A stretch of 64,000 nucleotides of DNA from Phytohabitans rumicis (GTDB lineage: Bacteria > Actinomycetota > Actinomycetes > Mycobacteriales > Micromonosporaceae): the NCBI RefSeq assembly GCF_011764445.1, contig NZ_BLPG01000001.1, positions 1,798,001-1,862,000 on the forward strand, given 5' to 3'. The translations under genes were made by a program, and so were the position numbers. The notes below the pieces were generated by a model, which was given only the letters and a program-made list of their open reading frames with translations, ran no database searches and had not been told where the DNA came from. This document shows, one piece after another, positions 1 to 18,922 of the stretch; positions within the stretch are counted from its first letter, which is position 1, and each line of letters opens with the position of its first letter.

Positions 1-175
1 CCAGCGTGGCGAGCATCTGCAGCGTGGTGGTTTTTCCGGCGCCGTTCGGGCCGAGGAATCCGAAGATCTCGCCCTCGGCCACGTCGAGGTCGACGCCGCG
101 GACGGCCTCGACGACCTCGGTGCGGCGGCGCCGCTTGGACCGGAAGGACTTGCGCAGCCCTTTGGTGACAATCAC
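1..175 (-). CDS. ABC exporter ATP-binding subunit, N-terminal part (DrrA-like)
   Basis: The 58 visible codons are the start of an ABC ATPase that powers export of a small molecule, cut by the window's left edge. A GTG start opens with VTKGLRKSF, a basic stretch, and then the Walker A motif [10 protein letters not shown] around residues 43-52. The short spacing before Walker A and the sequence [20 protein letters not shown] fit the daunorubicin-resistance (DrrA) type of exporter. The gene diverges from the ACP gene across about 115 bp, so both probably use that interval as promoter. A candidate permease lies 12 kb away, but this gene's own partner may lie beyond the edge. Confidence 0.85.
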
Positions 176-290
176 GGACCTGACTGTATTCGCCGCCGCT
201 CCGGTGCCGATTGGGCGCGGATAGAGGATGCGTCCAGGGCCGCTGGAGCCGCCGCCACGAGGCCCCGCAACGGGTTACCGTCATACCACT

Positions 291-530
291 ATGGACTCGT
301 TGGTTGTGGTGGCGGCGCTGCTGCGCGAGATCACCGGCGAGAGCGTGGCCGTCACGCGGGCCACCAGGCTTGAGGACGATCTGGGGCTGGAGAGCGTCGA
401 GCTGGCCGCGCTCGGGGGTGCGCTGCGCGCCCGGTACGGCGTGGACCTGCCGGCGTATCTGGCCGGGCTCGACATCGACGAGCTCATCGAGCTGACCGTC
501 GGCGACATCGCCGGGCTGGTGACCTCGTGA
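291..530 (+). CDS. Free-standing acyl carrier protein 1
   Basis: A 79-residue acyl or peptidyl carrier protein. The motif DDLGLESVEL (residues 29-38) places the phosphopantetheine serine at S35. The ATG at this position gives a normal carrier-protein N-terminus (MDSLVVVAALLREIT); a longer in-frame ATG upstream would add a proline/arginine-rich stretch with no carrier homology. No convincing ribosome-binding site precedes it. Its stop overlaps the GTG of the glycosyltransferase (GTGA), so the two are translationally coupled. That coupling suggests, but does not prove, that the sugar is added to a carrier-bound intermediate. Confidence 0.85.
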   Translation: MDSLVVVAALLREITGESVAVTRATRLEDDLGLESVELAALGGALRARYGVDLPAYLAGLDIDELIELTVGDIAGLVTS

Positions 531-1675
531 GCAAGTTCTTGTTCGTGGTGCCGCCGGTGGCGGGGCACGTCAACCCGGCCGGGGCGGTGGCGCGGGCGCT
601 CGCCGACCAGGGGCACGACGTGGCCTGGGCGGGGCCGGAGACGACGCTGCGGCGGATGCTGGGCGACGAGACGGTGATGATCTACGGGACCGGGATGCGG
701 CCGTACCGGGGGCAGCGTGACCGCGGCCTGCGGGCGATCAAGTCGGTGTGGGAGGGCTTCCTCATGCCGTACGCCCGGTTCACCCTGCCCGCGGTGGAAA
801 AGGCGGTGCTGGCGTTCGAGCCGGACGTGGTGGTCGTCGACCAGGTCGCGCCGGCCGGTGCGGTGGCCGCCCACCGGCACGGGGTGCGCTGGGCGTCGCT
901 CGCGCCGCAGATGCTGGAGCTGAGCCGCCCGTTCCGCCATCTGCCCAAAGTGGACGCGTGGATCCGGACCACGGCGGCGAGCCTGTCCGCCGACGGGCCT
1001 GACGACCCGCGCTTCTCGCCGTATCTGCAGATCCTGCTCACCACCCGGGAACTCTTCGGCCACGAGGAGTTGCCGGAGCACACCGTGCTGGTCGGACCGG
1101 TGCTCACCGGCCGGCCCGAGCCCGACTTCCCGTGGGAAGCACTGGACGGGACCAAGCACCAGGTCGTGGTCACCATGGGCACGCTCGCCGACGACCTGGC
1201 CCGCGAGTTCTATCCGCGGATGGCCGGTGCGCTGCGCATGCTGGGCGACCGGGTCCAGGCGATCGTCACGGCGCCGCCCGACGCGGTGCCCGACCCGCCG
1301 CCGCAGACCATCGTCGCGCCGCGGGTGCCGTTCCTGGCCTTGATGTCGCGCCTGTCCGCGGCGGTCTGCCACGGCGGCATGAACACGGTCAGCGAGATGC
1401 TGGCCCACGGCGTGCCCCTGGTGATCGCGCCCATCAAGCACGACCAGCCGATGGTGGCCAACCGGGTCGCCGCGGCCGGCGCCGGCGTCCGGGTCCGGTT
1501 CGGCCGCTCCAGCGCAGAGGAACTGCGCGACGCGCTCGCCACCGTGCTAGACGACCCGGCCTACCGCACCGCGGCCACCGGCCTGGCCAGTTCCTTCACG
1601 GAGGCCGGCGGCGCCCCAGCCGCCGCCACCCACCTGATCGCCCTGGCCACGTCCGGCGCCACGTCCGACCGGTGA
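527..1675 (+). CDS. MGT-family glycosyltransferase (GT1 fold)
   Basis: A 382-residue GT-B glycosyltransferase of the UGT/MGT (macrolide glycosyltransferase) type. The N-terminus MSKFLFVVPPVAGHVNP carries the acceptor-side start typical of the family, and HGGMNTVSEMLAHGVPL near residue 282 is the nucleotide-sugar binding signature. The GTG start overlaps the upstream ACP stop. It probably glycosylates the cluster's product or an intermediate; no sugar-modification genes are nearby, so a common NDP-sugar donor is likely. The TGA stop lies inside a palindromic repeat shared with the convergent E1 beta gene. Confidence 0.9.
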   Translation: MSKFLFVVPPVAGHVNPAGAVARALADQGHDVAWAGPETTLRRMLGDETVMIYGTGMRPYRGQRDRGLRAIKSVWEGFLMPYARFTLPAVEKAVLAFEPDVVVVDQVAPAGAVAAHRHGVRWASLAPQMLELSRPFRHLPKVDAWIRTTAASLSADGPDDPRFSPYLQILLTTRELFGHEELPEHTVLVGPVLTGRPEPDFPWEALDGTKHQVVVTMGTLADDLAREFYPRMAGALRMLGDRVQAIVTAPPDAVPDPPPQTIVAPRVPFLALMSRLSAAVCHGGMNTVSEMLAHGVPLVIAPIKHDQPMVANRVAAAGAGVRVRFGRSSAEELRDALATVLDDPAYRTAATGLASSFTEAGGAPAAATHLIALATSGATSDR

Positions 1676-1730
1676 TCATGAAGTTATCCGCGTAGATGAT
1701 CTCTACCGCGACGACAACCTCATGATCACC
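1671..1730. repeat. Palindromic repeat family A, copy 1 (bidirectional terminator candidate)
   Basis: A 60-bp imperfect inverted repeat whose ends read GGTGATCATGA and TCATGATCACC, with a GTT/AAC-containing arm and a short centre. It sits exactly between two convergent genes. The TGA of the glycosyltransferase (1673-1675) and the frame-corrected TGA of E1 beta (minus strand, 1728-1726) both lie in its terminal GTGATCA. Two further copies lie near 32.3-32.5 kb. It may act as a two-way terminator; no T tract is present. Confidence 0.75.
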
Positions 1731-2699
1731 GGGGCTTGGTGACAGCCTGGATGGCTGCCAGCAGTTGGGGCGGGTGGGTTGGACGGCGCGGTCCAACTCG
1801 GGCGAGCAGCCGACCACTACCGCGCCGTCCGGGCGGGTCACCCGCTTGGGCGGCGCGATCAGGGGCATCTCCTCGGCGGCGGTGGCCAGGATCTCGGCGC
1901 CGATGCCGCAGTGGCGGTTGGAGTCGTCGAAGACCACGAGCCGGCCGGTACGCTCCAGCGACGCGGCCAGCCCGGCCCAGTCGAACGGGTAGAGCGTGCG
2001 CGGGTCGAACACCTCCACCGACAGCTCGCCGGACAGCTCGTCGGCCACGGCGAGGGCCTCGTGCACCAGGTGGCCGATCGCCACCACGGTCACGTCGGTG
2101 CCGGGGCGGCACACCCGCCCCACGCCCAGCGGCACCGGCACCAGATCCACATAGGACACCTCCTCACGGATGCCGAGTGCCGGCATGGGACAGAACACCA
2201 CCACCGGGTCGTCGTCGCGGATCGCGGTGGTGAACAGGCCGTACGCGTCGGTGGGGGTCGCCGGGATCACGGTCTTGACGCCCAGGTGCGCGAAGACGCT
2301 GTACGGCTGGTCGGAGTGCTGCGCGCCCCAGCCCGGCCGCCAGCCCGTGCCGGGCAACAAGTACGTCACGGGCACCGCGACCTGCCCGCCGCTCATCAGC
2401 GCGAACTTGTTGGCCTGGTTGGCGATCTGCTCTAGCACCAGTAGCAGCAGGAACGGGATCTGGTACTCCACCACGGGACGGCGGCCGGCCATCGCCGCGC
2501 CGGTGGCGAAGTTGGTGAAGCCCTGCTCGGACAGCGGCGTCTCCAGCACCCGCTGCGGGCCGAAGCGGTCCAGCAGCCCGGTGGTGACGTTGTTGAGGGC
2601 GAACTTGATGTCCTCGCCGAGCACGAACACCGCCGGGTCGCGCTCCATCTCGTCGGTCAGCGCCTTGTTGAGCGCCTTCGTGTACGACAGCTTAGGCAT
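1726..2699 (-). CDS. Thiamine-diphosphate dehydrogenase E1 beta subunit, with apparent frameshift
   Basis: The beta subunit of a 2-oxoacid dehydrogenase E1, of the pyruvate/branched-chain type. MPKLSYTKALNKALTDEM, GEDIKFALNN, PLSEQGFTNFATGAAMAG and GTGWRPGWGAQHSDQ-like segments match the family, and the transketolase C-terminal domain follows. As read, the last coding stretch leaves frame at the G/C runs around 1767-1778. Adding one base restores a normal tail ending PPQLLAAIQAVTKPR and the stop used here; without it the frame runs on to 1596 with unrelated sequence. It overlaps the E1 alpha gene by 8 bp. No E2 or E3 is nearby, as in the PglB/PglC pair of phenylglycine biosynthesis. The acyl substrate is unknown. 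Confidence 0.82.
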
Positions 2700-3660
2700 G
2701 CGAAACTCCCGCCCTGACCCGCATTCCGGTGGCGTACAGGTGGTCGAACGCGTCCAGCGGGTCCGGCCGCGGGCTGTCCAGCGCGAACCGCACCGCCTCG
2801 TCCAGCACCGCCTCGACCTCCGCGTCGATCGTTTCCCGTACCGCCTCGGGGACCCGCTCGGACTGGATCGCCAGCGGATCCGGCCAGTGCGACGCCTCCT
2901 GCGGATCCCGGTACTGCAGCCGCACCTTCCGCTCGAACGTGTGGTGCCCCTCGTACCGGTAGGTGAGGAACTCCACGAGCGACGGTCCGTCCCCGGCCCT
3001 CGCGCGGGCTACGCAACGAGCCATCGCGTCGTACACCACGTCCGGATCCTGTCCGTCCACTGTGGACCCGGGGATGTCGAAGGCGGCGGCCCGGCCGACG
3101 ACCGTGCCAGCGATGCCCGCCGCTGCCGGCAGCGTGGTGGCGTACCCGTTGTTCTCGCACACGAACACCACCGGCACCCGCCACAGCGACGCCAGGTTGA
3201 ACGACTCCAGCAGCGCCCCCTGGGTCACCGCGCCGTCGCCGAAGACGCTGACCGCGATCCGGTCGCCGCCGTCCTGCGCCAGCGCCCAGGCCACCCCGGC
3301 CGCGATGGCGGCGCCGTGCCCGACCGTGCCGCTGGCGCCGTAGACGCCGGCGGCGAAGTCGGACGGGTGGAACGAGCCGGCCCGGCCGCGGTCGATGCCG
3401 GTCACCCGCCCGGTCAGCTCGGCCATGAACCGCGCCGGGTCGCTGCCCTTGGCCAGCAGGTGCCCGTGGCCGCGGTGGTTGCTCAGCAGGACGTCGTCGG
3501 CGCGCAGCGCGGCGCACACCCCGGCGGCGACGGCCTCCTGGCCGATGCAGGGGTGGATGCCGCTGCCGATGTCGCCGGACCTGACCAGCTCGATCGCGCG
3601 CTCCTCGAAGCGGCGGATCAGCCGGATCGTCCGGTACAGGCCCTCGGCGGAGGGGCGCAT
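2692..3660 (-). CDS. Thiamine-diphosphate dehydrogenase E1 alpha subunit
   Basis: A 322-residue E1 alpha subunit. The thiamine diphosphate motif runs from GDGAVTQGALLESFN (residues 141-155) to ENNGYA near residue 169, and HRGHGHLLAKG near residue 62 is the conserved substrate-side loop. With E1 beta it should decarboxylate a 2-oxoacid to an enzyme-bound hydroxyalkyl group. The ATG has a GGGGGAG ribosome site and follows the DUF3050 stop by 12 bp. Within this operon the substrate could be an aryl-2-oxoacid from the hydroxymandelate branch or an aliphatic starter for the KAS III; the sequence does not decide. Confidence 0.9.
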   Translation of the reverse strand: MRPSAEGLYRTIRLIRRFEERAIELVRSGDIGSGIHPCIGQEAVAAGVCAALRADDVLLSNHRGHGHLLAKGSDPARFMAELTGRVTGIDRGRAGSFHPSDFAAGVYGASGTVGHGAAIAAGVAWALAQDGGDRIAVSVFGDGAVTQGALLESFNLASLWRVPVVFVCENNGYATTLPAAAGIAGTVVGRAAAFDIPGSTVDGQDPDVVYDAMARCVARARAGDGPSLVEFLTYRYEGHHTFERKVRLQYRDPQEASHWPDPLAIQSERVPEAVRETIDAEVEAVLDEAVRFALDSPRPDPLDAFDHLYATGMRVRAGVSHA

Positions 3661-3672: not shown

Positions 3673-4461
3673 CTACCTGGCCTTGATGGCGGCCAGGATG
3701 CCGTCCCAGAACGCGTACCGCGCGGACAGTGCCAGGTTGACCGTGTCGGCGCACTCCTGCCACTTCACCTCGCTGTCGCCGCACAGGTCGGTGACCATCT
3801 GCATCGCCATCGGGGTGTGCTCCTCGCCGTCCACCTCGATGTGCCGGGCCAGATAGTCCACGAACATCTCCAGCGGGCCGCCGCGCTCCTTGACCGCGAT
3901 CACCTGGGTGAACATGTCCGGGATGAGGTCCTCCCGGCCGAACGCGAACGCGGCCGCCTGGCAGTGCACCGGCGCGGTGTCGATGAACCCCCACGTCGTC
4001 CGCACGAACTCGGCCGCCGGTCCCGGCACCGCCGCGTCGGTCAGGGCCGGCTTGACGTGTACGCCGGAGCGCACCAGGTCGATGAACGTGGTGACCCGCG
4101 ACGTGTCCGCGCCCGCCTCGGCCATCCCGGCGACGTACAGCTCGAAGTGGCTGATGAACCCGCCGCGCAGCTCGTCACTCTCCTCGACCAGCACGATGTC
4201 GTTGATCAGCCGCCGGCTGCCGGCCGGGCCGGTCGGCACCCACGGCACCCGTACGCAGGTGAGGTTGCGCTGCAACGACTTGAGCAGCGACATGAAGTCC
4301 CACACCGCGAAGACGTGGTGCTCCATGAAGGTGACGATGGCCTGGTGCGTGTCGAGGTTGGCGTACAGCGGGTGGGTGACGACCCGGCTGCGCGCCGCGT
4401 CGACGGCGGCCTCCAGCCGGGTGATGCCGGGGTGCGTCTGACCCCAGTCGTACCGGGACAT
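3673..4461 (-). CDS. DUF3050 protein, heme-oxygenase-like fold
   Basis: A 262-residue, mostly helical protein that I recognise as DUF3050. The family has the heme-oxygenase-like fold shared with diiron oxidases (HDO superfamily), but its reaction is not established here. Candidate metal ligands are E47-H48-H49 in [13 protein letters not shown]105/E107 in ISHFELY, and H207/E209/D211/H215 in [11 protein letters not shown]. The ATG has an AGGAAGGTGAGG ribosome site and lies 18 bp after the PhyH gene. Its place between PhyH and E1 alpha suggests oxidation or oxidative decarboxylation of the aryl intermediate (inference). Confidence 0.75.
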
Positions 4462-4479: not shown

Positions 4480-5373
4480 TCAAGACCGCCAGAGCACGGG
4501 GCAGAACTCGGGGTCGCTGTAGTCGGGTGTGCCGGCGGGGGTCCGGCGCACCAGGTGGTCGTGGTTGTACGTCACGGGCGTACCGTCGGACAGCGAGCGG
4601 ACCCGGTAGCGGTTGTCGCCGTCCTGCAGGTGCAGCGAGATGGCCCGGCGCGGGCTGCCGGACCGGTTCGCCCCGCTGCCGTGGTACGTGCGGCAGTGGT
4701 GGAAGCTCATGTGTCCCTTGGGGATGACCATCGGCACCTTGCGCACCTCGGCGCCGTTGTGCTTGGCGTTGTCGTGCACCAACTGCTCCAGCTCGGCCGC
4801 GTCGCGGTGGGCGAAGTGCCGGGTGGTGTTGTCGTCCCCGCCGAACTCCGTCCACACGTGACTGCCGTCCACCATCGTGATGGTGCCCATCTCCTCGCCG
4901 CAGTCGTGAAACGGGATGAACGCGGTGAGCATCCGGTCGGACGTACACGTCTGCCAGTAGTGCCGGTCGAAGTGCCACGGCACCAGGTTGGTCGGCTCCT
5001 CCGGCCGCGGCGGCTTGTAGATGAGCGTGGACTGGAACAGGCGGATCTCGGCCGCCCGGGCCAGCCGCGCCGCGACCGCACCGATGATCTGCTTGCGCAG
5101 GATGGCGGCGATCGCGTCGCTCTCGTAGTGGACGTAGTCGTTGTGCCGCTGCACCGTGCCGTGCGACGGCTCCCAGTACGCCAGCGTCGGCGGCCGCTTG
5201 CCCAGCCGGCGGCTGCGCGCACCGGCGTAGAACCCCTCGCTCGCGGTGGCCAGCGCGTCCACCTCCGCGTCGGTGAGCAGCTTCCGCGACAGGTACCAGC
5301 CGTGCTCCTCGTACCCCCGCACGTCGTCGTCGGACGGCAGCAGCGCCGGATCGATGTCGGCGACCGTGGTCAT
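4480..5373 (-). CDS. PhyH-family Fe(II)/2-oxoglutarate dioxygenase
   Basis: A 297-residue phytanoyl-CoA-dioxygenase-like protein. The facial triad is visible as H134 and D136 in WHFDRHYW and H231 in CRTYHGSG, with the arginine-rich SPRRAISLHL near residue 240 as the 2-oxoglutarate anchor. Such enzymes hydroxylate or epoxidise small molecules and often act on carrier-bound substrates. The ATG follows the hydroxymandelate-synthase stop by 11 bp with a GAAGGGA ribosome site. No mandelate oxidase is present in the window, so this enzyme or DUF3050 might oxidise the hydroxymandelate; that is inference. Confidence 0.88.
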   Translation of the reverse strand: MTTVADIDPALLPSDDDVRGYEEHGWYLSRKLLTDAEVDALATASEGFYAGARSRRLGKRPPTLAYWEPSHGTVQRHNDYVHYESDAIAAILRKQIIGAVAARLARAAEIRLFQSTLIYKPPRPEEPTNLVPWHFDRHYWQTCTSDRMLTAFIPFHDCGEEMGTITMVDGSHVWTEFGGDDNTTRHFAHRDAAELEQLVHDNAKHNGAEVRKVPMVIPKGHMSFHHCRTYHGSGANRSGSPRRAISLHLQDGDNRYRVRSLSDGTPVTYNHDHLVRRTPAGTPDYSDPEFCPVLWRS

Positions 5374-5384: not shown

Positions 5385-6455
5385 TCAGGCGTCCGCGCCG
5401 GCGCGCGAGCGCTCCTTCGCCTCGTACAGGGCCTTGATGTTGTTGCTGCCGAACGTCTGCGCCCCGTGCCGCTCGATCAGCTCGAAGAAGAACGTGCGCC
5501 GCTCGAACGGCGACTCGGTGAAGATCTGGAACATCTCGCCCCAGTGGTCGCGGTCCACCAGGACGCTGCCGGCCCGCAGCGCGCCGACCGACCGTCCGAT
5601 GTGGCCCAGCCGGCCCTCGATGGCGTCGTAGTAGCTGTCCGGCGTCTTCAGGAACCGCACGCCCCGGGCGCCGAACACGGCCACCGCCTCGGTGATGTCG
5701 GCCGTGCTGAGCGCGAGGTGCTGCACCCCGCCGCCGTCGTTGGCGCGCAGGAAGTCGTCCAGCTGCCCCGGCCGGCACGCCGGATCGGGGGCGACGATGG
5801 TGAACGTGACCTCCCGCGACTCGCTCTGCACGACGGTGGAGTCCATCGCCTGCTCGCCGACCTCGACCCGCTCCTGGAAGATGTCCCGGAAACCGAACAC
5901 CCGCTCGTAGAAGCGCACCGTGGGCACCAGCTGGTCGGCCGGCACGCACAGCGCGGCGTGGTCCACGATGTCCAGCCGGTCGTCGGCGGACTCCGGCTCG
6001 GGCGGCAGCAGCTCGATCCCGCCGGGTAGGAACGCGCCCTCGGGCCCGCGCCGCTCGACGAGCGTGTGCGCCAGCCCTCCCGGACCGCCCACCGCGGCGG
6101 TCAGCACCACGGCGTCGTCGCGCCGCCAGGCCCGCGGCTCGGCCACCGGGGTCGCGCCGCGGCCCACCGCCTCGGCGTACGCCGCCGCCGCGTCGGCCGT
6201 TCGCAGGGCCACCCGCGCCACGCCGTCGCCGTGCCGCCGCACGTACCGGGATGCCGGGTGGCTGGCGGCGGTGCCCGAGGTGACCAGCAGCCGGATGTGG
6301 CCCTGGCCGAGCAGGAGCGAGCGCTGGTCGGCCAGGCCGGTGCTCGGCCCACCCTGGCCGATGCAGCGGAAGCCGAACGCGTCGCACAGGAAGCGGGCGG
6401 TCTGCTCCGCGTCGCCGACGTAGAACTCGACGTGGTCGACGGTCGTCACGTCCAT
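5385..6455 (-). CDS. 4-hydroxymandelate synthase-like dioxygenase (HmaS/HPPD family)
   Basis: A 356-residue, two-domain, alpha-keto-acid-dependent dioxygenase acting on 4-hydroxyphenylpyruvate or phenylpyruvate. Fe ligands are H166 (DHAAL), H246 (GVQHLAL) and E325 (FFELIER). The HPPD consensus PINEP reads TIVAP here (residues 219-223): threonine replaces proline and valine replaces the catalytic-pocket asparagine. STVVQS precedes it. Hydroxymandelate synthase of glycopeptide clusters has the same kind of changes, and its length (about 357) matches. I therefore favour side-chain (benzylic) hydroxylation to hydroxymandelate over ring hydroxylation to homogentisate. It overlaps the ketosynthase gene by 10 bp. 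Confidence 0.82.
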   Translation of the reverse strand: MDVTTVDHVEFYVGDAEQTARFLCDAFGFRCIGQGGPSTGLADQRSLLLGQGHIRLLVTSGTAASHPASRYVRRHGDGVARVALRTADAAAAYAEAVGRGATPVAEPRAWRRDDAVVLTAAVGGPGGLAHTLVERRGPEGAFLPGGIELLPPEPESADDRLDIVDHAALCVPADQLVPTVRFYERVFGFRDIFQERVEVGEQAMDSTVVQSESREVTFTIVAPDPACRPGQLDDFLRANDGGGVQHLALSTADITEAVAVFGARGVRFLKTPDSYYDAIEGRLGHIGRSVGALRAGSVLVDRDHWGEMFQIFTESPFERRTFFFELIERHGAQTFGSNNIKALYEAKERSRAGADA

Positions 6456-7705
6456 GATGGACCTCCGGTGCCCTTCAAAACGAGGCTGATGTTGTGCCCC
6501 CCGAACGCGAACGAGTTGGACAGCGCGACACCGGCGTCGGCCTCCCTCGCCGACTTGCGGACGTGGTCCAGTTCGCACTCGGGGTCGGGGTCGTCCAGGT
6601 TGACGGTCGGCGGCAGCACACCCTCGCGCAGCGCCATCGCGGTGGCGGCGGCCTCGACCGCGCCCGCCGCGGCGAGCAGGTGCCCGGTGCCGCCCTTGAT
6701 GGAGCTGACCGCCGGCGCGTGGTCGCCGAACACGGCGCGGATCGCCCGGGCCTCGGCGGCGTCGCCGAGTTTGGTGCCGGTGCCGTGGGCGTTGACGTAG
6801 CCGACGTCCTCGGGGCCGACGCCCGCGTCGGCCAGCGCCAGCCGCATCGCGTCGGCCGCGCCGGTGCCGTCCTTTCGCGGCGCCGTCGGGTGGTACGCGT
6901 CGGTGGCGACGCCCCAGCCGGCGACCTCGGCGTAGCCGGGGCGGCCCCGCGCGCGGGCGTGCTCGACCCGCTCCACCACCAGCACCCCGGCGCCCTCGCC
7001 GAGCACGAACCCGTTGCGCCGCCGGTCGAACGGCCGGCTCGCCTCGGTCGGGTCGGCCCAGCCGCCGGCCAGCGCGCGGGAGTTCAGGAACGTGGTCGCG
7101 GCGGTCGGCAGCAGCGGCGCCTCGGCACCGCCGCACACCACCACGTCGGCCAGCCCTTCCCGGATCAGCCGCAGCGCCTCCGCCACCGCGTACCCGCCGG
7201 ACGCGCACGCGGTCGAGATGGTCGAGCTGTACCCGCGGACGCCGTGCTTGATGGCGATCCGGGCGGTCGCCATGTTGGGCAGCATCGCGGCCAGCAGGTA
7301 CGGGGTGACCGCCGTGCGCCCCTGCTCCCGGCGGGCCAGCACCTCCGCCTCGAACGTGGCCAGCCCGCCGAACGCGTTGGCCAGCACCACGGCGGTCCGG
7401 GCCGGGTCGACGTCCCGGCCGACCTGGATGCCGGCGTCGGCGAGGGCCGCGTCGGCGGCGGCCATGGCCAGCACCACGAAGCGGTCGACCCGGCGCGCCT
7501 CCGACGGGGGCAGCACGCGCGCCGGGTCGACGTCCGGTGCCAAGCCCGCCGCGTCCAGGATCCCGGCCACCGGATGGCCGCCGGGCGGCGTCCGCAGACC
7601 GGACCGGCCGGCGCACAGGGCGTCGAAGAACCCCGCCGCGTCCGCGCCGAACGGGGTGAGCACTCCGATCCCGGTGACCGTGGCGCTCCGGGCGCCGGGT
7701 CTCAC
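6446..7705 (-). CDS. Beta-ketoacyl-ACP synthase II (FabF-like), discrete
   Basis: A 419-residue elongating ketosynthase. The triad is complete: C167 in STACASG, H307 in NAHGTGT and H342 in GTGHLLAAAG, with K337 conserved. It should condense an acyl group with malonyl-ACP. No chain-length factor partner is present, so it resembles FabF or a discrete ketosynthase of arylpolyene-like systems rather than an aromatic type II pair. The GTG start overlaps the TGA of the upstream ACP, so the two are coupled and the ACP is its probable partner. The C-terminus overlaps the dioxygenase start. Confidence 0.92.
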   Translation of the reverse strand: MRPGARSATVTGIGVLTPFGADAAGFFDALCAGRSGLRTPPGGHPVAGILDAAGLAPDVDPARVLPPSEARRVDRFVVLAMAAADAALADAGIQVGRDVDPARTAVVLANAFGGLATFEAEVLARREQGRTAVTPYLLAAMLPNMATARIAIKHGVRGYSSTISTACASGGYAVAEALRLIREGLADVVVCGGAEAPLLPTAATTFLNSRALAGGWADPTEASRPFDRRRNGFVLGEGAGVLVVERVEHARARGRPGYAEVAGWGVATDAYHPTAPRKDGTGAADAMRLALADAGVGPEDVGYVNAHGTGTKLGDAAEARAIRAVFGDHAPAVSSIKGGTGHLLAAAGAVEAAATAMALREGVLPPTVNLDDPDPECELDHVRKSAREADAGVALSNSFAFGGHNISLVLKGTGGPSWT

Positions 7706-10498: not shown

Positions 10499-10798
10499 TG
10501 ACTAGGACCTCCGAGGGAAAGGTGCGCACGCTTGGGATGATCAGCAATCTACCCGAGATGGGGCACGTTCCTGCCAGTGCCGGCAGGCCCCTGTCCCGAT
10601 AGGTGGGCGTCATTTGTTTGGCTGATCGATGAACTTGTGCGCAACCCGGCACGCCACCGTACAAGCGGAGATCCCCGGACAGTGGGAGCGCTCCCGACTC
10701 TACGGCGATCCGCTACCTTGTCCGGATTTAACCCGTCCCCTCATTGGTCGTCGTCATGCTGGAACTCTTCCAGAGTATTGACGCTTACCTGTGAAAAA
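10499..10798 (-). promoter_or_regulatory. SARP upstream region
   Basis: A 300-bp interval between ligase 2 and SARP. It holds the SARP ribosome site GGAGGT (10512-10507) and a -10-like TAGATT (10551-10546); no good -35 is visible. The remaining stretch next to the ligase gene shows no gene. Confidence 0.4.
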
Positions 10799-12442: not shown

Positions 12443-12451
12443 TGACTGCTC

Positions 12452-13323: not shown

Positions 13324-14697
13324 ATGAAGAGCCAGCGGATTCCCGTCCGGTTCGAAGGCGACGGCAGCGGCGTCGAAGAGCTGTCGTGGGGCCAGCGCGA
13401 GATGTGGCAGGCGATGCGGCGCCAGCTCACCTGGATGCCGATGGGGTACGCCGTGCCCATCGCGCCCGGCACCACCCTGGAGGACGCCGTCGCCGACCTG
13501 CGCTTCATGATGGGGCGGTACCAATCGATGCGCACCCGGCTGCGGCACGACCCCGACGGCCATACCCGTCAGGTGGTCGTCGCCGCCGGCGAGACCGCGC
13601 TGGAGGTGGTCGACGCCGACGACGACGCCGACCCCGCCGAGGTGGCCGACCAGGTCCACCAGCGGTACTGGAACAGCGACTACGACTTCGTCAACGACTG
13701 GCCCATCCGGGTGGCCGTCGTCCGGCACCGCGGCGTCCTCACCCACCACATCGCCGTCCTGTGCCACCTGGTCACCGACGGCTTCGGCGCCCTGGCCGCC
13801 CTGCGCGAGCTCGCCGACCGCGACCTCGTGTACGGCCGCAAGCCGGCACCCCCGATCACCGCGATGCAGCCGATGGAGCAGGCCCGATGGCAGCGCTCCC
13901 CGGCCGGCCAGCGCGAGCTCGCCGCGGTGCTGCGCCGGTGGGACTCGGTGCTGCGGGAGATCCCGGCCCGGCGCTTCCCCGGCTCCGCCGACCCCCGGAA
14001 CCCCCGCTACTGGCGGGTCAACCTCGACTCCCCCGCCACGCTGCTCGCCGTCCGCGCGATCCGGGCACGCACCACAGTGGACCCCACCACGATCCTGCTC
14101 GCGCTATTCGTCGTCGCGCTCGGCCGGGTCACCGGCGCCAGCCCCGTGGTGACCCGGGTGGTGGCCAACAACCGCTTCCGGCGCGGCCTCAGCGACGCGG
14201 TCAGCCCCATCACCCACACCGGCCTGTGCGTGGTCGACCTGCCGGACACGACCTTCGACGACGCCCTCGCCCGCGTCGAACGCCGCTCCGTCGCCGCCTA
14301 CCGGTACGCCTACTACGACCCGGCACGCCTGGACGAGCTGGTCGAGCGGGTCAGCCACGAGCGCGGCGAGGAGCTGGACCTGTCGTGCTTCTTCAACGAC
14401 CGCCGGCTACTCACCCGCGACCTGACCGCCGCACCGCCGCCGGCCCCGGACGAGCTGGCCGCCGCCGTATCGCTGAGCCGGATCCGTTGGGACAGCCAGG
14501 ACAAGCCCGTCGAACGGCTCTTCGCCACCATCAACGACGAGCCGGACACCCTTGACCTGGAGATGTTCGCCGACACCCACCACGTGTCGCCGGCCGACAT
14601 GGAGGCACTCGTCCGCGGCATGGAGACGCTGGCCGTCGCGGCGGCCTTCAACCCCAAGGCGTCCACCCGGATCCCGGCCGCGGCGGGTGTGTCATGA
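13324..14697 (+). CDS. Free-standing condensation-domain enzyme C1
   Basis: A 457-residue protein of the NRPS condensation/acyltransferase superfamily, with no fused adenylation or carrier domain. The usual HHxxxDG is CHLVTDG (C147-H148 to D152-G153): the catalytic second histidine and aspartate are kept, while the first histidine is cysteine. Near its N-terminus it has SWGQREMWQAM, the equivalent of the C1 core motif. It should form an amide or ester between carrier-bound or free partners. Its neighbour C2 is a close paralogue: both share RTRLRHDPDGHTRQVV and NRFRxGL. Its stop overlaps the C2 start (ATGA). Confidence 0.87.
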   Translation: MKSQRIPVRFEGDGSGVEELSWGQREMWQAMRRQLTWMPMGYAVPIAPGTTLEDAVADLRFMMGRYQSMRTRLRHDPDGHTRQVVVAAGETALEVVDADDDADPAEVADQVHQRYWNSDYDFVNDWPIRVAVVRHRGVLTHHIAVLCHLVTDGFGALAALRELADRDLVYGRKPAPPITAMQPMEQARWQRSPAGQRELAAVLRRWDSVLREIPARRFPGSADPRNPRYWRVNLDSPATLLAVRAIRARTTVDPTTILLALFVVALGRVTGASPVVTRVVANNRFRRGLSDAVSPITHTGLCVVDLPDTTFDDALARVERRSVAAYRYAYYDPARLDELVERVSHERGEELDLSCFFNDRRLLTRDLTAAPPPAPDELAAAVSLSRIRWDSQDKPVERLFATINDEPDTLDLEMFADTHHVSPADMEALVRGMETLAVAAAFNPKASTRIPAAAGVS

Positions 14698-16043
14698 CGC
14701 ACGTCACCGTCCCGTTCGAGGGCGACGGCGGCGGCGTCGCCGCCCTCGCCTGGGGCCAGCGCGAGATCTGGTCCGCGATGGTGCGGCAGAACTGGTGGCT
14801 TCCGATCGGGTACGCGCTGCCGCTCCCGCCGGGCACCACAGTGGACGACGCGGTCGACGACATCCGGTTCTGCGTCAGCCGCTACCCGACCATGCGCACC
14901 CGGCTGCGCCACGACCCGGACGGCCACACCCGGCAGGTCGTCGCGGCCGCCGGAGAGCTGAGCGTGGAGATCGTCGACGCGGCCGACGGAGCCGACCCCG
15001 ACGCGGCCGCCGAGCAGGTACGGCAACGCTACTGGGCCGGCGACCACGACTTCGTCGCCGACTGGCCGGTCAAGGCGGCCATCGTCCGGCACCGCGGCGC
15101 GGCCACCCACCTCGTCCTCGTCCTGTGCCACCTGGTCATCGACGCCATGGGCGGCCTGGTAATGCTCGACGAACTGGCCGCCCGCCGGGCCGGCAAGGAC
15201 CTGCCCCCGATCGGCACCCCACCGCTGGAGCAGGTCCGCTGGCAGCAGTCACCGGCCGGGCAGCGGCAAACGGCCGCCGCCCTGCGGCACTGGGAAGGGC
15301 TGCTGCGCACCGTCACGCCGGAGCGCTTCGCCGGCTCCACCGACCACCAGCGCCCGCGGCACTGGGAGGGCTACTTCCGCTCCCCCGCCGCCCACCTCGC
15401 GCTCCAGGTCATCGCCGAACGCACCAAAGTGGACGCCTCACCGCTGCTGCTGGCGCTCTTCGCGGTCTCCCTCGCCCGGCTCACCGGCATCAACCCCGTC
15501 GTCGTCCAGGTCGTGGTGGGCAACCGCTTCCGGCCCGGCCTCGCCGAGTCGGTCAGCCCGGTCAACCAGAGCAGCCTGTGCGCGATCGACGTCGCCGACA
15601 GCACCGTCGACGACGCGGTCCGGCTCGCCGCGCGCCGGGTGCTCGCCACGTACAAAAACGCCTACTACGACCCGTCCCAAGTGGACGACCTCGTCGCCCG
15701 CGTCGGCCGGGAGCGCGGCGCGGACCTCGACATCGCCTGCTACTTCAACGACCGCCGGCTGGAGGTCCGCGACCGGGCCGCCGGGCCGCTGCCCACCACC
15801 GACCAGATCCGGGCCGCGCTGCCGCACAGCACGTTCGCCTGGGGACGGCGGCAGGAGGACCCGTGGGAACGCCTCTTCGTCCACATCGAAGACGTGCCCG
15901 ACACCATGGCCCTCACCATCAACGGCGACACGCACTTCGTCTCGCCGGCCCACCTGGAGGCGTGCCTGCGCGGCATGGAACAGGTCGCGGTCGAGGCCGC
16001 CCTCGACCCGGCGGCCACGACCCGCGTCCGGCGGACCACATGA
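14694..16043 (+). CDS. Free-standing condensation-domain enzyme C2
   Basis: A 449-residue paralogue of C1. Its active-site motif is CHLVIDA (C145-H146 to D150-A151), so besides the cysteine at the first histidine the terminal glycine is alanine. H146 and D150 remain, so catalysis is plausible but the altered loop may change donor handling. Shared segments with C1 include the opening PFEGDG, GQRE(M/I)W, and the late CYFNDRRL/CFFNDRRL. It overlaps both C1 and the KAS III gene by ATGA. Two condensation enzymes in series would allow two acylations, or the formation of a symmetric or bis-acyl product (inference). Confidence 0.86.
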   Translation: MTHVTVPFEGDGGGVAALAWGQREIWSAMVRQNWWLPIGYALPLPPGTTVDDAVDDIRFCVSRYPTMRTRLRHDPDGHTRQVVAAAGELSVEIVDAADGADPDAAAEQVRQRYWAGDHDFVADWPVKAAIVRHRGAATHLVLVLCHLVIDAMGGLVMLDELAARRAGKDLPPIGTPPLEQVRWQQSPAGQRQTAAALRHWEGLLRTVTPERFAGSTDHQRPRHWEGYFRSPAAHLALQVIAERTKVDASPLLLALFAVSLARLTGINPVVVQVVVGNRFRPGLAESVSPVNQSSLCAIDVADSTVDDAVRLAARRVLATYKNAYYDPSQVDDLVARVGRERGADLDIACYFNDRRLEVRDRAAGPLPTTDQIRAALPHSTFAWGRRQEDPWERLFVHIEDVPDTMALTINGDTHFVSPAHLEACLRGMEQVAVEAALDPAATTRVRRTT

Positions 16044-16969
16044 CCGCGCTGGCCGCCGTCGCGACGTACCTGCCGGACCGGCGGGTGCCGATCGAGGAGC
16101 TGGCCGACGGGCTCGACCTGACCCCCATGCAGGTACGCCTGTTCCGGCGCTTCCACATGCTCTCCGACGTCTGCCGCGACCCCGACGCCACCCCGCTCGA
16201 CCTGCTCCTGGCCGCCGTGTCCAACCTGGACGCACTGCGCGGCCAGGAGCACCGCGTGCGGTACGTGCTGTACGCGCGCACCTTCCCGGTCGTCGTGCCG
16301 TACCCGCTCAACCCCCTGCACGCCCTGTGCCGGCTGCTCGGCCTCGACCAAGCCGTGGCGTTCACGGTCACCCACCACGCCTGCGCCACCGGCCTGCTCG
16401 CCATCGACGTCGCCGGCCGCCTGCTGGCCAGCGACCCCGACCCCGACGCGTACGCGCTGGTGCTGGCCGGCGAGAAGGCGTTCACCCGGGACGCCCAACT
16501 CGTACCGGAGACCTCCATCTTCGGCGAGGGCGCCTCCGCCTGCCTGATCCAGCACTCAGGACCGCGGGACCGGCTGCTGTCCTACGCCGCCAACCAGCGC
16601 GGCGAGTTCGACGACGAACTGTCCGACGACACGGCGAAGTTCCAGGAGGAATACCACTCGTCGCTGGCCGACGCGATCCTGGCGGCCGTCGACCGGGCCG
16701 GCCTCGACCTCGCCGACCTCGCGCTGATCCTGCCGCACAACGTCAACCTCGTGGCCTGGCAACGGCTGTGCCGGCGGATCGGCTACCCGGTGGCCCGGGT
16801 GCTGCTGGACAACGTGCCACTGACCGCGCACGTCTTCTGCGCCGACGCGTTCGTCAACTACACGACCGCCCACGCGCGGGGACTGCTACACCCGGGCGAC
16901 CGCTACCTCGTCGCCGCCGCGGGAGCCGGGCGCGGCGCCACGTTCTCGGCGATGGTTTTCGAACACTAG
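16040..16969 (+). CDS. KAS III-like acyltransferase/ketosynthase
   Basis: A 309-residue thiolase-fold protein of the FabH type. C115 in THHACATG is the nucleophile and H233 in LPHNVNL the first catalytic partner. Where FabH has asparagine in GNTSAAS, this protein has H264 in PLTAHVFCADAF. KAS III-like enzymes with an altered third residue often act as acyltransferases or use unusual acceptors, so priming or C-O/C-N acyl transfer should be considered as well as ketosynthesis. It overlaps the C2 stop (ATGA) and precedes ACP3 by 2 bp. Confidence 0.87.
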   Translation: MTALAAVATYLPDRRVPIEELADGLDLTPMQVRLFRRFHMLSDVCRDPDATPLDLLLAAVSNLDALRGQEHRVRYVLYARTFPVVVPYPLNPLHALCRLLGLDQAVAFTVTHHACATGLLAIDVAGRLLASDPDPDAYALVLAGEKAFTRDAQLVPETSIFGEGASACLIQHSGPRDRLLSYAANQRGEFDDELSDDTAKFQEEYHSSLADAILAAVDRAGLDLADLALILPHNVNLVAWQRLCRRIGYPVARVLLDNVPLTAHVFCADAFVNYTTAHARGLLHPGDRYLVAAAGAGRGATFSAMVFEH

Positions 16970-16971
16970 TG

Positions 16972-17262
16972 ATGGGACTGGGCACCATGGAGCAGCTCGA
17001 CACGGACCTCCGGCCGCAAGTCGTGAGCACCATCCAGGCGCTCCTGCCGCGGGTGCTGCGGCGGGAGATGCCGGACGCCTCGGAGCAGACCCGCCTCATG
17101 GAAGACCTGGGCATGAGCTCGTCCAGCTCGCTGGAGCTGATGCTCGAGCTGGAGGACAGCCTGGAGATCCAGATCGACGTCGAAGACATCGACCGGGAGG
17201 ACTTCGCGACGATCGGCACGCTCGCCGACTTCGTCGTCAAGCACCTGATGCCGGCCGGGTGA
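16972..17262 (+). CDS. Free-standing acyl carrier protein 3
   Basis: A carrier protein of about 96 residues with MEDLGMSSSSSLELMLELED (residues 43-62). The run of five serines contains the phosphopantetheine site, most probably S50 by alignment to DLGxxS. An alternative ATG five codons later gives a slightly shorter protein. The stop overlaps the GTG of the following thiolase-like gene. Placed directly after the KAS III-like gene, it is the likely acyl donor or acceptor for that enzyme and for the condensation enzymes. Confidence 0.86.
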   Translation: MGLGTMEQLDTDLRPQVVSTIQALLPRVLRREMPDASEQTRLMEDLGMSSSSSLELMLELEDSLEIQIDVEDIDREDFATIGTLADFVVKHLMPAG

Positions 17263-18137
17263 CGCGGATGTACACTGCCGGCCCGCCCGCCACCGACTAC
17301 CCCGGGCCGCACCTCGTCCGCGCCGCGCGCCGCGCCTTCCCCGGCCCGGCCGCCCGCGCCGCACACCCCGAGCACGCGCCACACCTGACCGCGTACCTGT
17401 CCGATCTGGTCCGGCCGTACGGGCTCGCCCTGCGCCAGCCGGCCGGCGGCCACTCGTACGGCGAGATGGCCGCCGCGCTGGTCGCCGACACCGTCCCGCC
17501 GCACGAGCCGGTCGACCTGCTCGTGCTGGCGTTCGCCGTGCCGGACATCCGCCCCGGGCGGGCCACCGCGACGTACCTGAGCCACATCTGCCCCGGCGCC
17601 CCCATGGCGTTCGCGGTCTGCGACCAGGGCGCCGCCGCCGGCTTCACCGGGCTCCGGCTGATCCGCGAGTACGCCCGCACCGGCGGCTGCCGCCGGGCCC
17701 TGCTCCTCGTGGTGGAGCAGGCCGGTCTGCCGTACGACCCGGCCGCCCCGGTCGCGCTCCCGACCCGGCACACCGGCGTGGCTCTGCTGTGCGGCGACTC
17801 AGGCACGGCGTGGCTCGGTCCGGTGCGCCAGGTACCCATGGCCCCGGGGCAAGCCGGCACAGCGCCGCCCGCGCTCCCGGCCGACCTGGACGCCGACACG
17901 CTGATCCTGGGCAACGGCCTGGGACCGGTACCCGGGGCCCGCTCGGCGCCGTCCGGACAGCCGTACACCGGTGTGTGGTGGACGCTGGCCGGCGAGCTGG
18001 CCGACCCGACCGCCCGCCGGATCGTGCTGGCCGACCACGACCCCGTGCTCGGCTACCTGTGTACGTCCACCGTGGAGATTGGTGGGACCGTCGAGGAAGG
18101 AGGCACAGGTGTCCGAGTGGAACTGGGGGCGTCCTGA
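17259..18137 (+). CDS. Reduced thiolase-fold (KAS III-like) protein, role unknown
   Basis: A 292-residue protein whose first 200 residues resemble the N-terminal half of a KAS III: SYGEMAAALVADTV, LLVLAFAVPDI, and AVCDQGAAAGF with a cysteine at 121. The second catalytic half is shortened (DADTLILGNGL), and I see no clear equivalent of the FabH histidine and asparagine. It may be a non-catalytic partner of the preceding KAS III-like enzyme or a divergent acyltransferase. It starts with GTG overlapping the ACP stop; its 3' end overlaps the methyltransferase start by 29 bp. Confidence 0.65.
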   Translation: MTRMYTAGPPATDYPGPHLVRAARRAFPGPAARAAHPEHAPHLTAYLSDLVRPYGLALRQPAGGHSYGEMAAALVADTVPPHEPVDLLVLAFAVPDIRPGRATATYLSHICPGAPMAFAVCDQGAAAGFTGLRLIREYARTGGCRRALLLVVEQAGLPYDPAAPVALPTRHTGVALLCGDSGTAWLGPVRQVPMAPGQAGTAPPALPADLDADTLILGNGLGPVPGARSAPSGQPYTGVWWTLAGELADPTARRIVLADHDPVLGYLCTSTVEIGGTVEEGGTGVRVELGAS

Positions 18138-18870
18138 CGAGCTGTCGCGACTGATGGACGAGGCATGGTTGGGCCTGGCCCGGTGCGACAAACTGGAACC
18201 CGTCGCCGCCGCTGCCCCGTACTCCCGCGACCAGCTGGGCGCCCTGGGCGTGACCGGCATCGAGTTCGCCGCCTGGAAGACCGCCCATCCGGAAGGGCTC
18301 GGCAGCGACCTGGTTTCGCTGCGGACCGACGACGCCACCACCGAGGCCGGGCACATCTGGCGGGTGGACGGCGAGTGCTACTTCGTAGCGCTGGACATCT
18401 GCCGGCCGCTGCCGTTCGCGGACGGCTCCGTCGACTGGGTGTACGCCGAGCACCTCATCGAGCACGTCACGCTCGACGACGGCATCACCTGGCTGACCGA
18501 GGTGCGGCGGATCCTCGCCCCCGGCGGACTGCTGCGACTGACCACCCCCGACCTGGCGACCTATGTGGACAGTTACACCACCGGGAGCGCGTTCTTCGAC
18601 CGGCACCGCAAGCGCCTGCACGCCGCGGGCCTGGGCCCACCGATGCCGGCCCGCCGGGCGTTCATGTTCAACCAGATCTTCTACCTGTACGGCCACCGCT
18701 GGCTCTACGACCTCGACGAGCTGCGGTACGCCCTGGGCGAGGCCGGCTTCGACCCCGACACCGTACGCCGCGCGTCCTTCCGCAAGGGCGCCCGCCCCGA
18801 CGTAGCCGACCTAGACCGCATCCTCCGCAAAGAAGAGTCCATGTACATCGAAGCAACCCCCCTACCGTGA
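18109..18870 (+). CDS. Class I SAM-dependent methyltransferase
   Basis: A 253-residue methyltransferase of the Methyltransf_11 type. ALDICRPLPFADGSVDWVYAEHLIEHV corresponds to motif II and post-motif regions and RRILAPGGLLRLTTPD to motif III; the glycine-rich motif I is weak. The GTG is set by a strong AAGGAGG ribosome site lying inside the preceding gene. It could methylate a phenol, carboxylate or sugar of the product. The TGA stop forms part of a long perfect palindrome that follows. Confidence 0.85.
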   Translation: MSEWNWGRPDELSRLMDEAWLGLARCDKLEPVAAAAPYSRDQLGALGVTGIEFAAWKTAHPEGLGSDLVSLRTDDATTEAGHIWRVDGECYFVALDICRPLPFADGSVDWVYAEHLIEHVTLDDGITWLTEVRRILAPGGLLRLTTPDLATYVDSYTTGSAFFDRHRKRLHAAGLGPPMPARRAFMFNQIFYLYGHRWLYDLDELRYALGEAGFDPDTVRRASFRKGARPDVADLDRILRKEESMYIEATPLP

Positions 18871-18922
18871 TCAGGGCGTCCCTCAAGTCGTTGGAACGAC
18901 TTGAGGGACGCCCTGATCACGG
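18865..18922. terminator. Perfect 58-bp palindrome between convergent genes (repeat family C)
   Basis: Two fully complementary 28-base arms (18865-18892 and 18895-18922) are separated by only GG. The left arm begins CCGTGATCAGGGCG and contains the methyltransferase stop codon. It lies between the methyltransferase and the convergent amylase gene, and probably acts as a bidirectional terminator. The TGATCAGGG ends recur at 46.3 kb. With a two-base centre it would extrude as a cruciform more readily than form a normal RNA loop. Confidence 0.8.

What the first reader, a model, noticed from the sequence alone, without database searches (positions are those of the whole stretch)
1..18922. A biosynthetic cluster made wholly of discrete enzymes, with no modular megasynthase
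Three free ACPs, two free adenylate ligases, two free condensation enzymes, a FabF, a KAS III-like enzyme, a reduced thiolase-fold protein, three different non-heme-iron-type oxygenases or candidates, an E1 pair, a methyltransferase, a glycosyltransferase, a SARP and exporter parts lie together in two divergent operons. The gene content suggests an aryl-acyl glycoside or amide built on stand-alone carriers. I know no characterised cluster with this exact set; that is recall, not a search.
Basis: partly seen in the sequence, partly recalled or inferred. Interest (0 to 1): 0.8.

Follow-up and report, generated by a model that had tools for sequence, protein, structure and literature searches.

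The report
Free-enzyme cluster with nitrogen-nitrogen bond genes
A soil bacterium carries a conserved set of separate enzymes that probably builds a small molecule from hydroxyphenylglycine, and one enzyme of unknown function in it is a good candidate for a new way of making the nitrite used to join two nitrogen atoms.

Summary
The gene inventory is real, but the cluster is longer than reported: it continues about 11 kb left of the window, where the missing 4-hydroxyphenylglycine (HPG) genes lie. It sits between the arg operon and tyrS across the genus (DUF3050 gene in 6 of 6 genomes held).

Two blocks separate. Block A (HPG, E1, PhyH, DUF3050, ketosynthase, ACP, two ligases) also occurs without block B in Micromonospora, Kribbella and Kitasatospora. 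Block B (condensation proteins, KAS III-like pair, GT, exporter) was seen complete only in Micromonosporaceae.

The second 'ligase' belongs to the CreM/Tri17/AvaA6 diazotase clade, and DUF3050 is a HamA-type heme-oxygenase-like protein. Among 250 family genomes 68 of the 74 with DUF3050 also have the diazotase clade; 63 of 82 DUF3050 copies lie within 20 kb of it. In one homologous cluster type DUF3050 stands where a relative has the nitrite-making pair CreE-CreD. I propose that DUF3050 supplies nitrite for N-N bond formation on an HPG-derived unit.

Against: the window's ligase has lost its P-loop lysine; 15 genomes have the ligase with neither nitrite gene; nothing was tested chemically. The product is unknown.

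The parts
1..175 (-). 5' end of a DrrA-type ABC exporter ATPase (rest left of the window, L003:8222-9175)
   Evidence: PF00005 5.3e-32, PF13732 3.3e-10
306..530 (+). free acyl carrier protein 1
   Evidence: PF00550 1.8e-5
527..1675 (+). UDPGT/MGT-type glycosyltransferase
   Evidence: PF00201 1.6e-17; TIGR01426 137.7 bits, below its cut-off of 260
1596..2699 (-). E1 beta subunit, ThDP-type; the tail overlaps the GT gene, relatives are 319-322 aa
   Evidence: PF02779 6.5e-27, PF02780 1.1e-25; lengths
2692..3660 (-). E1 alpha subunit, ThDP-type
   Evidence: PF00676 1.4e-62
3673..4461 (-). DUF3050, HamA-type heme-oxygenase-like (HDO) protein; proposed nitrite or nitrosating-nitrogen source
   Evidence: PF11251 9.5e-95; HamA 9vwb by fold, E 2.1e-16, and by sequence, 3.3e-55
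4480..5373 (-). PhyH-type Fe/oxoglutarate oxygenase
   Evidence: PF05721 6.4e-25
5385..6455 (-). 4-hydroxymandelate synthase (HmaS)
   Evidence: TIGR01263 338.8 bits; best PDB match 2r5v; Ile/Tyr pair
6446..7705 (-). FabF-type ketosynthase with Cys and two His
   Evidence: PF00109 4.8e-42, PF02801 9e-40; motifs
7702..7968 (-). free acyl carrier protein 2
   Evidence: PF00550 1.6e-5
7985..9412 (-). Lig1: free AMP-binding ligase, probably acyl-ACP or amino-acid loading
   Evidence: PF00501 4.5e-36, PF13193 4.3e-10
9648..10664 (-). SARP regulator (limits of the open frame; the true start lies inside it and was not fixed)
   Evidence: PF03704 1.9e-43, PF00486 8.7e-6 on 9648-10394
10799..12442 (-). 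Lig2: member of the CreM/Tri17/AvaA6 diazotase / N-nitrosylase clade, with altered P-loop GTTRVPA
   Evidence: NF058622 454.4 bits; PDB 8ztz 379 and Tri17 317 bits; clade gap 341 to 132 bits; P-loop
12452..13207 (-). ABC-2 type exporter permease
   Evidence: PF01061 2.5e-26
13324..14697 (+). stand-alone condensation protein C1 (CHLVTDG)
   Evidence: PF00668 5.7e-21; translation
14694..16043 (+). stand-alone condensation protein C2 (CHLVIDA)
   Evidence: PF00668 2.6e-20; motif
16040..16969 (+). KS3: KAS III-like protein with Cys-His-His (the Asn site of KAS III is His)
   Evidence: PF08541 5.8e-11; 30 of 30 rows; FabH, CerJ, ChlB3, PqsC by profile
16969..17262 (+). free acyl carrier protein 3
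   Evidence: PF00550 7.9e-8
17259..18137 (+). THL: KAS III/thiolase-fold protein without the active Cys, probable non-catalytic partner of KS3
   Evidence: model, fold search; no Cys at the site in 20 of 20 rows, motif aligned by eye
18154..18870 (+). SAM-dependent methyltransferase
   Evidence: PF08241 1.5e-8

Best explanation
The region is a conserved biosynthetic cluster made of two modules of free enzymes. Module A makes and activates an aryl unit: HmaS, Hmo and HpgT make 4-hydroxyphenylglycine (HPG); Lig1 loads an acid onto ACP2 and FabF can extend it; PhyH and the E1 pair modify it (steps not assigned). DUF3050, a HamA-type HDO, supplies nitrite or an equivalent nitrosating nitrogen, and Lig2, of the diazotase clade, uses ATP and that nitrogen to diazotise or N-nitrosate the amine. 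Module B joins the tethered acyl unit to a partner through the condensation proteins and a KAS III-like pair (KS3 active, THL inactive) on ACP3, adds methyl and sugar, and a DrrAB-type pump exports the product. Shown: families, folds, gene order, clade membership, co-occurrence. Inferred: every reaction, their order, and an N-N group in the product. Separate odds: HPG is used 0.8; DUF3050 and Lig2 act together in N-N chemistry 0.55; DUF3050 is the nitrite source 0.45.
For: HPG: best PDB match of HmaS is 2r5v (305 bits, HPPD-named chains 266 or less); Ile/Tyr in 14 of 14 rows; Hmo- and HpgT-like genes beside the window, kept in the four same-genus genomes whose left end was read. Lig2: NF058622 454 bits over 4-536; in 296 phylum genomes the clade scores 341 bits or more, the next ANL protein 132; Tri17 is the next PDB match after 8ztz (Tri17 = 9BQ0/8TF7 from passages of PMC11705231). 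DUF3050: HamA fold. Passages in PMC11705231 name HamA and HamE as hypothetical N-N-forming proteins of fragin, with nitrite as the supposed nitrogen source; passages in PMC11659414 say HamA is not needed for the hydroxylamine intermediates and that the hamA mutant makes fragin when fed an intermediate that already has the N-N bond, which places HamA at or just before the N-N step. Link: of 250 family genomes 86 have the Lig2 clade, 74 DUF3050, 68 both; 63 of 82 DUF3050 copies have a Lig2-clade gene within 20 kb; of 113 Lig2-clade copies 63 have DUF3050 within 20 kb, 4 have a CreD-like gene within 30 kb, none has both. Swap: L220 has A-PCP-FADox-diazotase-CreE-CreD-KAM; L218 and L219 have A-PCP-FADox-diazotase-DUF3050; L118 has the first four, KAM, DUF3050. 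In the tree L220 branches beside a starred group holding L095 and the three DUF3050 rows. Five DUF3050 loci with a hydrazine-type cassette (L122, L123, L124, L131, L132) have no CreE/CreD in the stretch, and 4 of the 5 genomes have no CreD-like hit of 500 bits or more anywhere.
Against: The window's Lig2 and 17 other KS3-associated copies (18 of 18) read GTTR(V/M)P(A/T) instead of GTTGxPK, so the P-loop lysine is gone and the activity may have changed; Lig2 is also far below the AvaA6 equivalog cut-off (454 against 975). 15 of 18 Lig2-positive genomes without DUF3050 also have no CreD-like hit of 500 bits, and 46 of 113 Lig2-clade copies have neither gene nearby. L033, L035 and L037-L039 have Lig2 and KS3 without DUF3050 in the stretch. 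In the cassette search not biased to DUF3050, 2 of 6 loci had CreE/CreD, 2 had neither gene, 2 were too diverged to judge, and none had DUF3050. In 21 of 51 annotated DUF3050 loci I recognised no N-N gene (only 8 of these 21 were looked at protein by protein). An mgoB (DUF3050) mutant still made mangotoxin at a reduced level; the authors suspect incomplete inactivation (PMC3298696 passages). Shared descent makes the co-occurrence counts far from independent. No arylamine-forming gene was recognised in block A, whereas CreM, AvaA6 and CmaA6 act on arylamines. The 500-bit line for CreD is my own.
Confidence: 0.45

Rival explanations
1. Lig2 has become an ordinary or inactive activating protein, DUF3050 oxidises carbon or nitrogen of the HPG unit in another way, and the product is an aryl-acyl glycoside or amide without an N-N bond.
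For: P-loop lysine lost in 18 of 18 KS3-associated copies; Lig2 in KS3 clusters without DUF3050 or CreD; proteins of the HDO fold do many reactions (UndA, CADD, HrmI, PolF and AetD entries).
Against: Block-A-only copies keep GTTGxPK beside the same DUF3050 (7 of 7 rows); the motif Glu and the C-terminal TGK are kept; strong linkage of the two families; the CreE-CreD/DUF3050 swap.
Confidence: 0.28
2. Diazotisation is a deamination step, as in the ava and cma pathways: the amine is diazotised and lost as N2, so the final product carries no N-N bond although nitrite and Lig2 are used.
For: The same clade of diazotase does this in ava/cma, with free ligase, ACPs and ketosynthase (PMC10777205, sections 5 and 9 read).
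Against: No gene in the window was recognised as an AvaA7-type denitrification enzyme, but none was searched for with an AvaA7 model; a short-chain dehydrogenase-like gene is next to E1b in L034, L057 and L126 only among the loci read.
Confidence: 0.15
3. The cluster is decaying in this strain and makes nothing.
For: The PPTase reads in two frames and E1 beta has an aberrant tail, unlike relatives.
Against: All core genes are open and the cluster is kept across the genus; a PPTase elsewhere in the genome could serve (not searched).
Confidence: 0.07

Closest known systems
ava (avenalumic acid) and cma (p-coumaric acid) clusters (PMC10777205: abstract, sections 5 and 9 read)
   Same: Free acyl-ACP ligase, free ACPs, ketosynthase and a diazotase of the same clade, no megasynthase; 72 of 134 ava-like clusters are said to lack the ANS nitrite genes.
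   Different: They use 3-amino-4-hydroxybenzoate. Here HPG genes, an E1 pair, PhyH and DUF3050 are present, only one FabF is in the window, and block B is extra.
ham / mgo / pvf clusters (fragin, valdiazen, mangotoxin) (passages of PMC5878181, PMC11659414, PMC3298696, PMC11705231)
   Same: DUF3050/HamA-type HDO and, in ham, a free condensation protein (HamF).
   Different: They have an AurF-like N-oxygenase and an NRPS and, in what I read, no diazotase; the window has neither AurF-like enzyme nor NRPS but has the diazotase clade.
HPG sub-pathway of glycopeptide-type clusters (recalled; HmaS structure 2r5v)
   Same: HmaS, Hmo-like and HpgT-like genes.
   Different: No NRPS; HPG would be handled on free carriers.
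KAS III-fold acyl transfer and condensing enzymes CerJ, ChlB3, PqsBC, AbyA1
   Same: KAS III fold; an active/inactive pair as in PqsC/PqsB (the PqsBC comparison is recalled).
   Different: KS3 has His where KAS III has Asn (30 of 30 rows); sequence similarity is low (PqsC 2.6e-8 by profile).

Membership tests
4-hydroxymandelate synthase (HmaS) | closer to HmaS than to HPPD, with Ile and Tyr at two product-determining positions (their meaning is recalled) | tested here: met
   2r5v 305 bits, HPPD-named chains 266 or less; I/Y in 14 of 14 rows
ATP-dependent diazotase / N-nitrosylase clade (CreM, Tri17, AvaA6) | full-length sequence membership, set apart from other ANL enzymes | tested here: met
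   454 bits; clade 341 or more, next 132; tree with outgroups
AvaA6 equivalog (NF058622) | score above the curated cut-off of 975 bits | tested here: not met
   454.4 bits
ATP-dependent diazotase / N-nitrosylase clade (CreM, Tri17, AvaA6) | intact P-loop GTTGxPK | tested here: not met
   GTTRVPA in the window; altered in 18 of 18 KS3-associated copies
ATP-dependent diazotase / N-nitrosylase clade (CreM, Tri17, AvaA6) | reaction with nitrite and ATP | not testable with these tools
   needs enzyme assay
HamA-type DUF3050 HDO | DUF3050 family and HamA/HDO fold | tested here: met
   PF11251 9.5e-95; 9vwb TM 0.86/0.91, 38% identity
HamA-type DUF3050 HDO | candidate iron ligands conserved | tested here: met
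   E93, E94, H105, E177, H207, D211, H215 invariant in 19 of 19 rows; matched to the SznF ligand pattern by eye, geometry not checked
ava-type cluster | KS plus CLF | tested here: not met
   one FabF in the window; other block A loci such as L101 and L103 have a second FabF-like gene and L103 a PF13723 protein
ava-type cluster | 3,4-AHBA synthase genes (AvaH/AvaI) | not tested
   none among the genes identified in the cluster, but no model of these was searched
ANS nitrite pathway in this genome | CreD (nitrosuccinate lyase) | tested here: not met
   best hit 378 bits, cut-off 650; by eye it is pcaB in a pca operon
PqsBC-like KAS III heterodimer | one active and one Cys-less KAS III-fold subunit encoded together | tested here: met
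   KS3 C/H/H 30 of 30, THL no Cys 20 of 20; fold
PqsBC-like KAS III heterodimer | physical complex and head-to-head condensation | not tested
   no complex was predicted

The most novel reading that the evidence does not exclude
DUF3050 is a diiron enzyme that forms nitrite (or another nitrosating nitrogen) and has replaced the CreE/CreD aspartate-nitrosuccinate pathway more than once in N-N-forming clusters. Here it feeds a P-loop-altered diazotase that puts a diazo or related N-N group on carrier-bound hydroxyphenylglycine, which free condensation proteins and a KAS III-like pair then transfer.
Probability: 0.4. Interest if true: 0.87.

Novelty: new variant of a known kind. Interest (0 to 1): 0.7.

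Why it matters
The source of the second nitrogen in fragin-type compounds is described as unsettled in the review passages read (PMC11705231). A single enzyme family that stands in the place of CreE-CreD in homologous clusters would give a direct test of that question and a one-gene marker for N-N natural products that searches for ANS genes would miss. The cluster family itself is widespread, has no product that I could find, and shows a modular logic: a constant aryl module next to changing coupling genes (condensation proteins plus a KAS III-like pair, a PF02458 transferase, a weakly ATP-grasp-like protein, or an AMP-binding and carrier set).

Tried and rejected
Considered and rejected or dropped. 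(1) HPPD instead of HmaS. (2) Nitrite from CreD elsewhere in this genome: the one hit is, by eye, pcaB in a pca operon. An earlier Pfam test (PF10397, PF13454) rested on a recalled choice of families and is superseded. (3) tyrS as a self-resistance gene: it borders the cluster in the window and in the four relatives whose left end was read and looks like a fixed chromosomal neighbour; not tested further. (4) A named product: listings gave none. (5) Strict complementarity of DUF3050 and CreD at genome level was not found: CreD-like hits of 500 bits or more are in 4 of 68 Lig2+DUF3050+ and 3 of 18 Lig2+DUF3050- genomes; only the absence of both from one locus is clear. (6) tblastn on plasmids with DUF3050 and KS3 gave 33 and 20 records, all under 60% identity; the four regions opened added the distant KS3 contexts only. 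(7) DUF3050 as a hydrazone oxidase: passages of PMC13061610 show that reaction for a ferritin-like enzyme, Dob3; the role stays open for DUF3050. (8) One search failed in my gene caller; the repeat covered 51 of the 80 DUF3050 loci (L101-L151). L152-L180 were left out, nearly all non-actinobacterial, but L154 is a Streptomyces. (10) No paper was found that assigns nitrite formation to DUF3050; only open-licence papers are held.

Full report
What is there. The window is C1:1798001-1862000 of a 10.7 Mb genome in 3 contigs. Its family is Micromonosporaceae: G106, listed as same family, has a contig of 10,494,953 bases, the length of the Dactylosporangium fulvum chromosome record. No tool named the genus. 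The thiolase-fold protein has no Pfam match; its model (mean pLDDT 85.3) finds KAS III folds, ChlB3 first at 9.6e-10.

The cluster is longer than reported. Left of the window lie a DrrA-type ABC ATPase, a PPTase, an FMN-dependent hydroxyacid oxidase (PF01070 3.6e-119), a TPR protein, a beta-helix protein, an HpgT-like aminotransferase and an alpha/beta hydrolase, then tyrS, named from its sequence by eye. With HmaS this gives a full 4-hydroxyphenylglycine (HPG) route. HmaS rather than HPPD is supported by the best PDB match, 2r5v, and by the Ile/Tyr pair in 14 of 14 rows (the meaning of the positions is recalled).

Conservation. A KS3-like protein is in 56 of 250 family genomes. The five other genomes of the genus (G031, G057, G077, G091, G103) carry the cluster in the same order, with two exceptions: G077 has no C1, and the G057 contig ends inside DUF3050. 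DUF3050 is in 6 of 6 genomes held for the genus. In 5 of 5 relatives the cluster lies beside the arg-mpg genes, and in the 4 whose other end was read it is followed by the hydrolase and tyrS.

Two blocks. Block A, taken as HmaS, PhyH, DUF3050 and E1 together, is in 24 of the 51: Micromonospora, Catellatospora, Actinophytocola, Kribbella, Dactylosporangium, Catenulispora, Streptantibioticus, Kitasatospora, one Streptomyces and one Streptosporangiaceae MAG. In 20 of these 24 stretches (8 to 21 kb) there is no KS3 or THL gene. Other coupling-type genes are near instead: a weakly ATP-grasp-like protein in L103 (PF14398 0.0012, below its cut-off) and similar-sized genes at the same place in other Micromonospora loci, and a PF02458 transferase in L144. 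Block B without DUF3050 in the stretch occurs in L033, L035 and, reduced, in L037-L039. KS3 was searched for only in the family, in plasmids and in these loci.

The second ligase. Lig2 matches NF058622 (3-aminoavenalumate diazotase) with 454 bits, cut-off 975, so it is not called an AvaA6 equivalog. In 296 phylum genomes the clade scores 341 bits or more and the next adenylating enzyme 132. Its best PDB matches are 8ztz (379 bits) and Tri17 (317 bits) (Tri17 identified from passages of PMC11705231). The motif Glu and the C-terminal TGK are kept. The P-loop reads GTTR(V/M)P(A/T) in 18 of 18 KS3-associated copies, the window included, and GTTGxPK in the other 3 rows of that alignment and in 7 of 7 block-A-only rows of the tree set.

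DUF3050. The model (mean pLDDT 89.8) matches HamA 9vwb best (E 2.1e-16, TM 0.86/0.91, 38% identity), then UndA, a TenA homolog, CADD, HrmI, and lower down PolF and AetD. MgoB of mangotoxin is DUF3050 too (PMC3298696 passages); its mutant still made mangotoxin, less than wild type, and the authors suspect incomplete inactivation. Passages of PMC11705231 call HamA and HamE hypothetical N-N formers with nitrite as supposed source. Passages of PMC11659414 place HamA after the hydroxylamine and at or before the first N-N intermediate: HamA is not needed for the hydroxylamines, and the hamA mutant makes fragin when fed the N-N intermediate. E93, E94, H105, E177, H207, D211 and H215 are invariant in 19 of 19 rows and resemble the SznF ligand pattern given; this is pattern matching by eye.

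Association. Of 250 family genomes 86 have the Lig2 clade (E 1e-40 or better), 74 DUF3050, 68 both, 6 DUF3050 only, 18 Lig2 only, 158 neither. The Fisher p of 7.7e-37 is far too small because the cluster is inherited. Of 82 DUF3050 copies 63 have a Lig2-clade gene within 20 kb. Of 113 Lig2-clade copies 63 have DUF3050 within 20 kb, 4 have a CreD-like gene within 30 kb, 0 both, 46 neither. CreD-like means 500 bits or more with NF052556, a line I drew in the gap between 443 and 513 bits. It is met in 4 of 68 genomes with both genes and in 3 of 18 with Lig2 only. The window's genome has one hit of 378 bits, by its neighbours a pcaB gene.

Gene swap. L220 carries adenylation, PCP, FAD oxidase, diazotase, CreE, CreD and an aminomutase-like gene (CreD by NF052556 score of G113; CreE by its place and its likeness to the gene beside CreD in L217). 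L218 and L219 carry the same first four genes (54-74% identical) and then DUF3050. L118 (Nonomuraea) carries the four, the aminomutase-like gene, then DUF3050. L095 carries the four and the aminomutase-like gene with neither nitrite gene in the stretch. In a 26-row tree the three DUF3050 rows of this type form a 100/100 group, joined by L095 (95/91), with L220 outside; long-branch warnings concern L096 and the outgroups. Five DUF3050 loci (L122, L123, L124, L131, L132) carry a lyase, amidase, GS-like, GNAT and 642-aa gene, four of them also a ferredoxin, and no CreE/CreD in the stretch; I read this as the hydrazine cassette of the fosfazinomycin/kinamycin type, from memory. 4 of these 5 genomes have no CreD-like hit of 500 bits. 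In a search not biased to DUF3050, 6 of 394 class genomes had the 642-aa gene: 2 with CreE and CreD, 2 with neither, 2 too diverged to judge, none with DUF3050.

Model. HPG is made, loaded and modified by module A, with DUF3050 as source of nitrite or another nitrosating nitrogen and Lig2 as the enzyme that uses it; module B couples, methylates, glycosylates and exports. KS3 has Cys-His-His in 30 of 30 rows and THL no Cys in 20 of 20, so I read them as an active/inactive KAS III-fold pair. None of these reactions was tested, and E1 and PhyH have no assigned step.

Results against the reading: the altered P-loop; 15 of 18 Lig2-positive genomes without DUF3050 that also lack a CreD-like hit; 46 of 113 Lig2-clade copies with neither gene nearby; 21 of 51 DUF3050 loci with no N-N gene recognised (8 of the 21 looked at protein by protein); no arylamine source recognised in block A; a PPTase in two frames in this strain. 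No paper found assigns nitrite formation to DUF3050, but only open-licence papers are held and a HamA structure was released in November 2025, so related work may exist.

Verdict. It is a new variant of free-carrier clusters of the ava kind. Its most interesting part is a testable proposal about DUF3050.

Noticed in passing
L003:7558-8216 (left of the window): The PPTase beside the cluster reads in two frames; three relatives have 213-214 aa in one frame and a fourth was cut by the stretch. Frameshift or assembly error.
   Followed up: partly
window 1596-2699: E1 beta is 367 aa here but 319-322 aa in four relatives; the extra tail overlaps the GT gene on the other strand.
   Followed up: partly
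L024 (own genome C1:412001-432000): A second KS3-type gene (55%) lies in another cluster with two acyl-CoA dehydrogenase-like genes, an AMP ligase, ACPs and a type III PLP decarboxylase-like gene, named by eye; L040 and L041 look alike, and a Streptomyces decoyicus plasmid has a related set.
   Followed up: no
L185 (own genome near C1:7990446): A second DUF3050 copy (65%) lies near an aminodeoxychorismate-synthase-like gene and AMP-ligase pieces, named by eye.
   Followed up: no
L222 (own genome near C1:1060885) and L121: A diverged DUF3050 copy (44%) sits near DXS-, IspG- and IspH-like genes; L121 also shows IspG/IspH-like genes before its DUF3050. Reason unknown.
   Followed up: no
L037, L038, L039: Lig2, GT, ABC pair, KS3 and THL next to prenyltransferase-, polyprenyl synthase-, cyclase-, FAD oxidase- and aminotransferase-like genes (by eye): a possible meroterpenoid variant.
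   Followed up: no
window 18940-22500: An alpha-amylase with CBM20 and an SMR pump with a TetR regulator lie between the cluster and the mpg gene in this genome.
   Followed up: no
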